Shown: in pieces, positions 26,011-32,796 of the stretch
How positions within the stretch are numbered: the first letter of the stretch is position 1
Layout of the letters: every line of letters starts with the position of its first letter
Virus record (IMG/VR): IMGVR_UViG_3300005664_000023
Location: 1-35,316 of that record
Reading direction: 5' to 3' (one strand)
Origin: a virus
DNA length: 35,316 nucleotides
Notes under the pieces: generated by a model
Databases searched by the model: none
Seen by the model: the letters and a program-made list of their open reading frames with translations, nothing else
What the model was told of the DNA's origin: nothing
Made by a program: the position numbers and the translations under genes

Positions 26011-26199
26011 ATGAATACACTCGACATCACGAAGTTATCAGACACAGAAGTAAAGGCACTTGCCTATGAGCAGTTGGTAGCACGCAATCAGGCGCAGAAC
26101 AACATCAACGTCTGCGAGGAAGAGTTAGCGAAGAGAGCACAGTCTAGGACAGAAGTGGAAGAGGAAGTAGAAGAAGAACCAAAAGAAGCAACTGAGTAA
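26011..26199 (+). CDS. Small acidic protein
   Basis: 62 residues. The N-terminal helix pattern LDITKLSDTEVKALAYEQLVARNQAQNNINVCEEELAKR resembles short phage proteins often found next to the fibre or lysis genes, and the tail is Glu-rich (EVEEEVEEEPKEATE). Function unknown. It lies 5 nt after the preceding gene and overlaps the endolysin start by TAATG, so it is translated with the lysis cassette. Confidence 0.52.
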   Translation: MNTLDITKLSDTEVKALAYEQLVARNQAQNNINVCEEELAKRAQSRTEVEEEVEEEPKEATE

Positions 26200-27008
26200 T
26201 GATTCCCTTCTTCCTCAAATATAACCGTAAGCATCTCGACTATGATGGCTCCTATGGGAACCAGTGTGTCGATGTAATCAAAGCGTACTTTGAGGAGGTT
26301 CTTCACAGGATTCCCCTAACAGGAAACGCCATTGACTACTGGAGGGACATCCCTGGGTTCACACGCATCAAGAACTCTCTCTTCTCCTACCCTAAACCTG
26401 GAGACATTATTATCTGGGACAAGACAGCATCGAACCCCTACGGCCATATCGCTATCGTGAACTGGGTACGACGCTTTGACTTCGGGTGCTTTGAACAAAA
26501 CAACCCACTCAATTCCCCCTGTCACTATGGCGAACATAACTACAAGGGAGTTATTGGCTGGCTACGACCTATGCAGAAATCCCAATACGCCATACCACTG
26601 ACCATTGTTGGAGCGAAAATCCCTGGGCTAAAGGAGGAAGTGGAGAAGTGGTCTGCTGGGTTCTTTACCCTTGATATTCGCCATGTTCCCATGTCTCTAC
26701 CCTACATCCCAACGCAAGACTACCAGTACCTCGTGAGTGGCCGATATTGTATAATTAGTTGTGAGCCAGGCCCTCAAATCTACAAGACTTCTCTGACTAA
26801 TGATTTGAACACGGCATACGCAATAGCTGGCTCCGACGCTCTAACAGCATCCTATGAAGTGAGCCACATGTTGCACAAATACTACCTAGCTCACCGAGGC
26901 TCTAGCCCATACATCGACATAGAAGACACTATGGGTGGTGTACTGGACGAGCAACGCTATCGGAAATTTGAAGTAATGAAACCATATGTAAGTGTAATAA
27001 TAAACTAA
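26199..27008 (+). CDS. CHAP-domain endolysin, no signal peptide
   Basis: 269 residues. The N-terminal CHAP domain (about 15-125) has the Cys nucleophile in GNQCVDV (Cys23), the His in NPYGHIAIV (His83) and a polar partner in CFEQNN (Glu99). It hydrolyses amide bonds in peptidoglycan. The C-terminal half (150-269) is separate: it has a SHMLHKYYLAHRG segment like a degenerate metallopeptidase helix and could be a second lytic or binding domain. There is no N-terminal signal, so release probably needs the holin encoded next (27008). It starts at TAATG and lies within the lysis cassette. Confidence 0.82.
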   Translation: MIPFFLKYNRKHLDYDGSYGNQCVDVIKAYFEEVLHRIPLTGNAIDYWRDIPGFTRIKNSLFSYPKPGDIIIWDKTASNPYGHIAIVNWVRRFDFGCFEQNNPLNSPCHYGEHNYKGVIGWLRPMQKSQYAIPLTIVGAKIPGLKEEVEKWSAGFFTLDIRHVPMSLPYIPTQDYQYLVSGRYCIISCEPGPQIYKTSLTNDLNTAYAIAGSDALTASYEVSHMLHKYYLAHRGSSPYIDIEDTMGGVLDEQRYRKFEVMKPYVSVIIN

Positions 27009-30127: not shown

Positions 30128-30577
30128 ATTAAGAAAATCCAACGCTGGGCAATCGCCCTTCTGGTAATTGGATACATGGTTCCAGCAAATGCCATGGCCC
30201 CAGTGGGAACTCCAATGAACGAGGGATACTACCAGCAAGCAGTCGTAGCCATAACGTCAGTGCCGCCAGAGAAGCAAGAACCTGCCCTAGAACGAACGAT
30301 ACTACCCAACATCGGGTGTTCATGCATACAGTACGTAAAGATGCGTCTTGGGGGCATTTCTGAGGTCTGGGGCTATCCTAACAAGATGAAGGCGTATGAA
30401 ATAAACCCCTATGTAGGGGGCGTAGTAGTAACCACAGAAGGACCCGTGGGGCATGTGGCACTTATAGAAGCAATCGAAGGCACAACGATGACCGTCAGCG
30501 AAGCGAACTATGTGAGGTGTAAAATCACAAGGCGGACGATAGAAATGAATTCCCCGTTCATACGAGGGTACAGATAG
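30128..30577 (+). CDS. Secreted CHAP-domain peptidoglycan hydrolase with non-ATG start
   Basis: Translation from ATT at 30128 (or 30125) gives 149-150 residues with a textbook signal peptide: basic KKIQR, hydrophobic WAIALLVIGYMV and a PANA cleavage site before MAPVG. The first ATG (30176) would delete most of it. The mature part is a CHAP domain: Cys64 or Cys66 in GCSCIQYVK, His109 in GPVGHVALIE, and acidic/Asn partner in VSEANY. It would reach the periplasm or wall by secretion without the holin, so it complements the cytoplasmic CHAP endolysin. An upstream stop (TAA 30119-30121) limits the possible start. A TAG ends it directly against the opposite gene. Confidence 0.7.
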   Translation: MKKIQRWAIALLVIGYMVPANAMAPVGTPMNEGYYQQAVVAITSVPPEKQEPALERTILPNIGCSCIQYVKMRLGGISEVWGYPNKMKAYEINPYVGGVVVTTEGPVGHVALIEAIEGTTMTVSEANYVRCKITRRTIEMNSPFIRGYR

Positions 30578-31738: not shown

Positions 31739-31938
31739 TTTGATGTGCAGAGTGTAGGGGGCAACGATTTGACGAGAGGCTATCAACCTTATTAGCCAGC
31801 GTACTTGCGTACCCAGTTACTCGTATAGTCACGTTGCATAGTAGTGGACTGACGGGTTTGTAGTTATTGTCCACACACCTTCCTACAATTATTTTAAGCG
31901 TCTACCTATTCCGCCACCCCTACATTCTACACACCAAA
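31739..31938 (-). ncRNA. Structured RNA unit D: tRNA-Leu-like arms in a long clamp helix
   Basis: Minus strand. A 13-bp helix (TTTGGTGTGTAGA with TCTGCACATCAAA, two G-U), one A x C mismatch and an 8-bp helix (TGTAGGGG with CCCCTACA) close the unit. Right after the 5' strand comes a D-arm sequence, GCGGAATAGGTAGACGC (31914-31898), as in tRNA-Leu. At the 3' side GCAACG (31837-31832) pairs with CGTTGC (31766-31761), leaving T...TCAAAT, a T-loop that seems interrupted. Inner hairpins are GTGGAC/GTCCAC, GTAC-GCAA-GTAC and GGCTA/TAGCC. No ordinary anticodon arm is found. Confidence 0.55.
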
Positions 31939-31953
31939 AATCAAAGAACTACG

Positions 31954-32056
31954 GTTGATGTGCAGGTGGGGAGATGCTCTACACAGTGAGCTAGAACGCT
32001 ACGAATAACGCCGTTGGAATCGAACCAACTTCCTCTCCCCCCATCTACACACCAAC
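31954..32056 (-). ncRNA. Structured RNA unit C: circularly permuted tRNA-like cloverleaf
   Basis: Minus strand. The outer helix GTTGGTGTGTAG/CTGCACATCAAC (12 bp, two G-U), an A x C mismatch and TGGGGGGA/TCTCCCCA close it. An alternative register pairs GGGGAGA/TCTCCCC. Inside, in order: a canonical T-arm, GTTGG-TTCGATT-CCAAC (32029-32013); a stem GGCGTTA/TAGCGTT (7 pairs, three G-U) capped by TTCG (32012-31995); and a D-arm, GCTC-ACTGTGTA-GAGC (31991-31976). T-arm, acceptor, D-arm is the tRNA order cut open at the anticodon, with the acceptor ends joined. Confidence 0.6.
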
Positions 32057-32167
32057 TTGTAACCTCAGCTCTGGGGACAGGCCATGTTGTGATGTAAAAG
32101 ACAACATCTAGCACTGCACTGGATGAGGTAGCGAACCCCAAGCAACACCCCAGAGCAGAAGTTGCAA
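32057..32167 (-). ncRNA. Structured RNA unit B
   Basis: Minus strand, directly abutting unit C. The closing helix has three segments separated by single mismatches: TTG/CAA, AACTTC/GAGGTT (one G-U) and a perfect 9 bp GCTCTGGGG/CCCCAGAGC. Inside are a T-arm-like hairpin TGGGG-TTCGCTA-CCTCA (one G-U; the loop lacks the usual A58) and a 7-bp hairpin ATGTTGT/ACAACAT with a 10-nt loop. Same architecture as units A, C and D, but tRNA resemblance is weak. Confidence 0.45.
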
Positions 32168-32174
32168 TGTAATA

Positions 32175-32190
32175 GTTAACAATTGTTAAC
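32175..32190. promoter_or_regulatory. 16-bp perfect palindrome
   Basis: GTTAACAATTGTTAAC is a perfect inverted repeat between RNA units A and B. It could be an operator for a dimeric regulator or a recognition site; nothing else in the window repeats it exactly that I noticed. Confidence 0.4.
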
Positions 32191-32195
32191 CTATA

Positions 32196-32280
32196 CTCCC
32201 AAGCCAAGTACGATACTCACGGACATTACGTCTGCGCACTCAAGATGCACTACACGCGAGTACCGTAGTTGACCTAGGAG
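32196..32280 (-). ncRNA. Structured RNA unit A: 26-bp imperfect helix with a three-way junction
   Basis: Minus strand, 85 nt, beginning about 12 nt after the kinase-like gene stop. The 5' strand 32280-32255 pairs with 32221-32196 over 26 positions with one C x C mismatch and five G-U pairs; on the plus strand these five would be A x C mismatches, so the minus strand is the transcribed one. The loop contains GTGCA-TCTTGAG-TGCGC (5 bp with a 7-nt loop, like an anticodon arm) and GAC-GTAAT-GTC. Confidence 0.55.
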
Positions 32281-32292
32281 ATTGTAAAAAAG

Positions 32293-32796
32293 CTACTCCC
32301 ACCACCCCGCTTTCACCAACTTCGCGCTCCACCTATGACTCATACTCGTTGCGAGTAGACTTGCATAGTCCACGCATACGAACTTGCCGTCTAGCCAACC
32401 ATAGTTTTTGTACTTTAAGTCGCCGAAAAAAGATGGGACATACTTTGGATACTCAGACTTCGGCTTCACCTCAACTCGCTTTTGTAAAAGGAACATACCA
32501 CACGGGCTAATATCTATGCACGGCGCAAACCACTTTGCTATGCTAGTCCGCTTCACTGTCTGCCAAACCTCATCTTCTAATACGTTGATGTTGGGAGTTT
32601 CAACGGCGCACTTTATAACTAGCGTCGGGTCTAGCTTATAGACTCCAACTTTTCTGTGAATGCCAGCACCAAGAGCTTCTCCAAACAACAACTCTTTTAG
32701 GTCTTCATATCGTGATAGTTCATTAATCATAGAGATAAAAGAATGGGAGCGTGCCTTGTGGCTAACGATGGCTCCCGTCACCGAGATATGGATCAC
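32293..32796 (-). CDS. Small protein-kinase-like protein
   Basis: 167 residues from GTG at 32796 (overlaps the upstream stop as GTGA); GTG at 32781 is an alternative 14 nt after AAGGAGG. A minimal kinase-fold pattern is visible: Gly-rich loop GEALGAGIHRKVGVYK (39-54), VIK (Lys62), acidic helix residue Glu74 or Glu76, GDLKYKN (Asp126, Asn131) resembling the HRDLKxxN catalytic loop, and VDYA (Asp143) at the DFG position. The C-lobe is much shorter than in true kinases, so it may be a reduced or inactive kinase. Neighbours are an HExxH protein and a phosphoesterase. Confidence 0.6.
   Translation of the reverse strand: MIHISVTGAIVSHKARSHSFISMINELSRYEDLKELLFGEALGAGIHRKVGVYKLDPTLVIKCAVETPNINVLEDEVWQTVKRTSIAKWFAPCIDISPCGMFLLQKRVEVKPKSEYPKYVPSFFGDLKYKNYGWLDGKFVCVDYASLLATSMSHRWSAKLVKAGWWE

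What the first reader, a model, noticed from the sequence alone, without database searches (positions are those of the whole stretch)
31739..32280. Array of four long tRNA-like structured RNAs in the minus-strand operon
The 565-nt gap between the kinase-like and PKD-like genes is filled by four consecutive units, each closed by a long helix made of two parts split by a single mismatch. Units C and D share flanking sequences (GGTGTGTAG on the 5' side, CTGCACATC on the 3' side) although their interiors differ, and both carry recognisable tRNA arms. Units B and C abut with no spacer. Units A, C and D contain wobble pairs that would be mismatches on the plus strand, which points to minus-strand RNAs. 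I know of no described RNA family with this arrangement; it could be tRNA-derived decoys, odd split tRNAs or a new processed RNA family.
Basis: partly seen in the sequence, partly recalled or inferred. Interest (0 to 1): 0.9.

Follow-up and report, generated by a model that had tools for sequence, protein, structure and literature searches.

The report
Phage array of Y-RNA-like tRNA mimics
A phage carries four tandem folded RNA units; one is clearly a diverged bacterial Y RNA (a transfer-RNA look-alike that normally works with the Ro60 protein) and a second shares its stem, although neither Ro60 nor its relative DUF2828 was found in this phage record.

Summary
The 568-nt gap folds into four closed units on the minus strand (z = -8.2 whole; A -7.8, B -3.6, C -5.3, D -3.9), and C and D share both arms of their lower stem exactly. 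The interpretation needs changing. Unit C is a circularly permuted tRNA fold: T arm, then a 7-bp acceptor stem capped by UUCG, then D arm, inside a long helix. That is the topology of the bacterial Y RNA YrlA. Rfam RF02553 is the best hit (27.3 bits, below its cut-off of 69). A covariance model built only from other viral RNAs hits the window at unit C alone (E 2.5e-14). These RNAs are Y RNAs: of 14 viral records chosen by RNA alone, 8 encode TROVE/Ro60. In a wider set 111 of 159 loci have a TROVE-like gene nearby, all on the same strand. Arrays with a common stem and differing heads, as here, occur upstream of phage Ro60 genes. The window differs: no TROVE or DUF2828 gene was found, the Ro-linked UACUUC motif is absent, and D, A and B have no recognised relatives. 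Best reading: a Y-RNA-like array whose protein partner is the host's, lies off the fragment, or is unknown.

The parts
31954..32056 (-). Unit C: YrlA-type Y RNA (permuted tRNA mimic in a long closing helix)
   Evidence: R1 covariance model built without it hits 31968-32040 at 42.6 bits, E 2.5e-14, the only significant hit in the window; RF02553 27.3 bits, E 0.0014 over all Rfam; fold z -5.3
32013..32029 (-). T arm of unit C: GTTGG-TTCGATT-CCAAC (5 bp, 7-nt T loop)
   Evidence: sequence; MFE fold; T-stem pairs covary in homologues
31995..32012 (-). Acceptor-stem mimic of unit C: GGCGTTA-UUCG-TAGCGTT, 7 pairs capped by a tetraloop
   Evidence: sequence; MFE fold; homologous hairpin fully paired in 110 of 128 RNAs beside TROVE-like genes with 115 different stems, commonest cap UUCG
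31976..31991 (-). D arm of unit C: GCTC-ACTGTGTA-GAGC; loop lacks the GG found in 127 of 128 homologues
   Evidence: sequence
32045..32056 (-). 5' strand of the lower stem of unit C (GTTGGTGTGTAG)
   Evidence: shared with D; resembles the 5' stem profile of YrlA, p about 0.0025 before correction
31954..31965 (-). 3' strand of the lower stem of unit C (CTGCACATCAAC)
   Evidence: shared with D; no match to the YrlA 3' stem profile
31739..31938 (-). Unit D: same lower stem as C, different and longer head; the head starts with an acceptor/D-arm-like stretch of tRNA-Leu
   Evidence: no Rfam match up to E 10; no R1 match
31894..31918 (-). tRNA-Leu-like stretch in unit D (GGCGGAATAGGTAGACGC region)
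   Evidence: short blastn hits, up to 25/25 nt, in other phages; the Bacillus phage hit lies in a tRNA-Leu-like sequence near an integrase
32061..32163 (-). Unit B: closing helix split by mismatches; one arm looks like a T arm (TGGGG-TTCGCTA-CCTCA); no family
   Evidence: fold z -3.6; no R1 or Rfam match
32196..32280 (-). Unit A: about 25-bp closing helix with one mismatch and two short hairpins; no family
   Evidence: fold z -7.8; no R1 or Rfam match

Best explanation
The gap encodes an array of Y-RNA-like RNAs. Unit C is a diverged YrlA-type bacterial Y RNA: a tRNA mimic in permuted order whose anticodon stem continues into a long double-stranded handle (shown by homology and covariation). 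Unit D uses the same handle with another head (shown by sequence). A and B are probably further units with unrelated heads (inferred from layout only). In TROVE-linked phages the handle lies where the Ro60-type ring protein is expected to bind, and the head is presented as a tRNA-like gate or lure for structured RNA or tRNA-handling enzymes. I infer the same use here. No TROVE or DUF2828 gene is on this 35-kb fragment, so the partner is a host Ro60-like protein, a gene off the fragment, or another protein. Approximate likelihoods: C is a YrlA-type RNA 0.92; C and D form one functional array 0.8; all four units do 0.6; the partner is a Ro60-like protein 0.4.
For: R1, built from seven viral permuted-tRNA RNAs without unit C, hits the window at unit C only. 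Its structure covaries: 94% of cells paired, 36 double changes against 11.9 in shuffles, 0/500, and this collapses when the pairing is slid. YrlA is the top Rfam match. Of 14 viral records selected only by this RNA, 8 have Pfam TROVE, and the RNA lies inside the loci fetched around each TROVE gene. In the wider set 111 of 159 loci have a TROVE-like gene in the held flank, 128 of 128 RNAs on the same strand, median 149 nt to the reading frame. Phage record G025 has five tandem units with one common lower stem, also split by an A.C mismatch, and heads from full tRNA mimic to almost none, directly upstream of TROVE. C and D share their stem exactly, and its 5' strand resembles the YrlA 5' stem.
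Against: No TROVE or DUF2828 on the record. The UACUUC motif common in Ro-linked RNAs is absent from unit C (survey). The D loop of C lacks the GG present in 127 of 128 homologues, so the tRNA elbow may be weak. The 3' stem does not match YrlA and the 5' match is modest after correction for eight tests. A, B and D have no homologues. The nearest relatives by the exonuclease gene have neither TROVE nor a convincing copy. No transcript data.
Confidence: 0.6

Rival explanations
1. Partner-free tRNA decoys: the phage makes stable tRNA look-alikes that absorb host tRNA-binding or tRNA-cleaving proteins, and the long helix only stabilises them.
For: C keeps T and D arms but has no anticodon loop and no CCA end; no TROVE or DUF2828 gene on the record. 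Salmonella YrlA was itself proposed as a competitive inhibitor of a tRNA nuclease (PMC7790460).
Against: C and D share their stem, not their head, which points to a stem-binding partner; homologues usually sit beside a Ro60-type gene.
Confidence: 0.2
2. Structured spacer in an mRNA: hairpins that are cut by RNase III or protect RNA ends, setting expression of the PKD-like gene downstream.
For: The units sit inside one operon between two same-strand genes; no promoter- or terminator-like site on the minus strand in the gap.
Against: Unit C is homologous to a free small RNA family, with tRNA sequence conserved in loops.
Confidence: 0.13
3. Remnants of a phage tRNA cluster or of an attachment site.
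For: D holds a tRNA-Leu-like stretch matched at a phage sequence near an integrase; a tandem tRNA pair can score about 42 bits with R1 (L169).
Against: ARAGORN and Rfam find no tRNA; the acceptor strands of C pair with each other across 4 nt, and its flanks pair over 20 bp, which neighbouring tRNAs would not do. No integrase was found among the ORFs scanned.
Confidence: 0.05
4. Permuted tRNA gene that is spliced and processed into a working tRNA.
For: Order of arms is 3' half before 5' half (sequence).
Against: The anticodon stem runs into a 20-bp helix without an anticodon loop; only UUCG separates the two acceptor strands, leaving no space for end maturation; no CCA.
Confidence: 0.02

Closest known systems
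YrlA, bacterial Y-RNA-like RNA (Rfam RF02553)
   Same: Permuted order T arm, capped acceptor hairpin, D arm, within a long 5'/3' helix; conserved T and D arm sequence; tandem copies occur.
   Different: Scores 27.3 bits against a cut-off of 69; lower stem is almost fully paired instead of having the large internal loop; UACUUC and the D-loop GG are missing; no Ro60 gene on the record.
Phage Y RNA arrays beside TROVE/Ro60 (e.g. records G025, G015, G019 here; Y RNAs in mycobacteriophages as cited in PMC12282133)
   Same: Several RNAs in a row; in G025 one common stem with differing heads.
   Different: In those records the Ro60 gene is next to the array; here none was found.
Viral arrays beside a DUF2828 gene (seen here in L245, L254, L227)
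   Same: Permuted tRNA mimics with a capped acceptor hairpin in phages with no Pfam TROVE match.
   Different: They carry an ACAGCAA motif and a DUF2828 gene; the window has neither.
Permuted tRNA genes of algae and archaea (from general knowledge)
   Same: 3' half precedes 5' half.
   Different: Those have an anticodon loop and processing sites; unit C has neither.

Membership tests
YrlA / bacterial Y RNA (unit C) | Permuted tRNA-like head: T arm, capped acceptor hairpin, D arm | tested here: met
   covariation in homologues
YrlA / bacterial Y RNA (unit C) | Score above the Rfam gathering cut-off of RF02553 | tested here: not met
   27.3 against 69 bits; none of the permuted-tRNA RNAs in the 11 viral loci scanned reaches it either, so the cut-off is strict for viral forms
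YrlA / bacterial Y RNA (unit C) | Long stem formed by 5' and 3' ends, with a Ro60-binding element | tested here: inconclusive
   Stem present; 5' strand resembles the YrlA profile, p about 0.0025 of eight tests, 3' strand does not
YrlA / bacterial Y RNA (unit C) | UACUUC motif next to the stem (105 of 180 RNAs, 2.5 expected; common, not universal) | tested here: not met
YrlA / bacterial Y RNA (unit C) | GG in the D loop, needed for the tRNA elbow | tested here: not met
   CTGTGTA in unit C; GG in 127 of 128 homologues
YrlA / bacterial Y RNA (unit C) | Ro60 (TROVE) gene nearby | tested here: not met
   No TROVE on the record; the record is classed linear and one ORF runs off its end, so absence from the phage is not shown
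YrlA / bacterial Y RNA (unit C) | Bound by Ro60 in the cell | not testable with these tools
   Needs biochemistry
YrlA (units A, B, D) | Match to the permuted tRNA-like head | tested here: not met
   R1 with filters off and Rfam up to E 10
tRNA (RF00005) | Cloverleaf with anticodon arm | tested here: not met

The most novel reading that the evidence does not exclude
A phage has kept a Y-RNA-like handle, put different heads on it in tandem, one a permuted tRNA mimic, one tRNA-Leu-like, and uses it without Ro60, with a new stem-binding partner.
Probability: 0.25. Interest if true: 0.7.

Novelty: new variant of a known kind. Interest (0 to 1): 0.5.

Why it matters
It turns a puzzling gap into a testable Y-RNA-like array, suggests that Rfam's YrlA cut-off misses viral members, and suggests that phages carry these RNAs as arrays with one handle and many heads. 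If the partner is not Ro60, it would widen what bacterial Y RNAs are for.

Tried and rejected
A first pattern with a too long D loop mostly returned tandem ordinary tRNAs and was corrected. RF02553 through the genome search was too loose to use (11 of 14 control genomes ring at E 0.1). Exonuclease relatives gave no homologous array; the G009 match looks like a tRNA remnant next to a possible integrase. Searches for relatives by the gene at 32293-32796 and by terminase found none. Nearest DNA matches of the array in phages were only short tRNA-like stretches or chance. Permuted tRNA gene and tRNA remnant were considered and rejected as above.

Full report
What is there. The 568 nt between the ORF 32293-32796 and the PKD-like ORF fold into four units on the minus strand. 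Single-unit z-scores are A -7.8, B -3.6, C -5.3 and D -3.9. C and D share 10 and 11 nt exactly on the two arms of their lower stem, with no other exact copy in the window.

Unit C. Read 5' to 3' it holds a T arm (GTTGG-TTCGATT-CCAAC), a hairpin of two 7-nt acceptor strands joined by UUCG, and a D arm (GCTC-ACTGTGTA-GAGC), enclosed by 8 bp, an A.C mismatch and 12 bp. This is a tRNA cut open at the anticodon and closed at the acceptor end: the YrlA topology. Rfam's best match is YrlA, 27.3 bits, E 0.0014 against all families, below the curated cut-off of 69. ARAGORN and Rfam at gathering level find nothing.

Independent test. A pattern for a T arm followed closely by a D arm was scanned over viral contigs, and folding filtered the matches. 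Seven of the resulting RNAs, not including unit C, gave an alignment with strong covariation and a covariance model, R1. R1 hits the window at 31968-32040 with 42.6 bits, E 2.5e-14; the next match has E 0.58. Caution: one tandem tRNA pair also reaches 42 bits (L169), so the score alone does not decide. The 7/7 paired acceptor hairpin and the long closing helix do.

These RNAs are Y RNAs. Of the 14 viral records chosen by the RNA, 8 encode TROVE by Pfam, with the RNA in the loci fetched around it. Three cautions: frames are stop to stop; my profile also picks up DUF2828, which it scores as related; and some of the 48 loci without it are tandem tRNAs. Among RNAs beside a TROVE-like gene, 110 of 128 acceptor hairpins are fully paired, with 115 different stems, and the commonest cap is UUCG, as in unit C.

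Arrays. In G025 five units upstream of TROVE share a lower stem split by an A.C mismatch, while their heads run from full tRNA mimic to almost none. Within 1.2 kb upstream of TROVE-like genes the UACUUC motif occurs two or more times in 75 of 123 cases, against 2 of 123 on the other strand. The window's layout, C and D with one stem and two heads, fits this.

What does not fit. The window has no TROVE and no DUF2828. Unit C has no UACUUC motif. That motif is commoner in viral records with a TROVE-like gene (38 of 70 RNAs) than without (3 of 17), Fisher p 0.007; that table counts DUF2828-type loci as TROVE-like. The D loop of C lacks GG. The 5' stem of C resembles the YrlA 5' stem (p 0.0025 before correction for eight tests), D less so (0.035), the 3' stem of C not at all. 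D, A and B match nothing. The record class was not printed individually, but an ORF runs off its right end, so a missing partner gene is not shown to be missing from the phage.

Literature. Y RNAs have been reported in mycobacteriophages and suspected in a Listeria phage with an Rsr-like protein (PMC12282133), and a Ro60-related protein in a Vibrio jumbo phage (PMC7765460). Jumbo phages with TROVE are noted in PMC7824862. The founding YrlA paper was not held. For DUF2828 the library returned four papers, all on plants by title; I saw no link to Y RNAs there.

Mechanism. Shown: C has the YrlA fold and homology; C and D share a stem. Inferred: the stem is a protein handle; heads are exchangeable modules; A and B belong; the partner is Ro60-like. 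In Deinococcus, Y RNA tethers Rsr to PNPase (as described in PMC7790460), so a phage array might redirect RNA decay or occupy tRNA-handling enzymes.

Noticed in passing
L254:5546-6949 and 7053 (G040); L245:844-1740 and 652 (G038); L227:12238-13677 and 12079 (G033); also L080, L108, L127 (G018, G020, G022) and G029, G030, G043: Viral records with permuted tRNA mimics but no Pfam TROVE match often encode a DUF2828 protein (PF11443; 9 of the 21 records other than the window). The RNA cores lie within about 1.4 kb of it in the six loci where both are held, and units carry an ACAGCAA motif, repeated in several. DUF2828 may be a second Ro60-like partner of Y RNAs; four papers naming DUF2828 were found, all on plants.
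   Followed up: partly
L177:2480-3500 (record G025): Five tandem Y RNAs upstream of TROVE with a common lower stem and heads from complete tRNA mimic to nearly none.
   Followed up: yes
L066, L067, L105, L143, L151, L167, L169, L175: No YrlA match at the gathering cut-off in these loci although all belong to TROVE-coding records and hold the permuted tRNA fold; the Rfam cut-off seems too strict for viral members.
   Followed up: partly
window 32175-32190: AT-rich perfect palindrome GTTAACAATTGTTAAC between units A and B.
   Followed up: no
window 26199-27008 and 30176-30577: Two CHAP-domain genes on the plus strand; the first matches phage endolysins.
   Followed up: no
L176:600-710 (Bacillus phage KLEB27-1): Unannotated tRNA-Leu-like sequence with a long middle part near the integrase gene; shares 25 nt with unit D.
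   Followed up: partly
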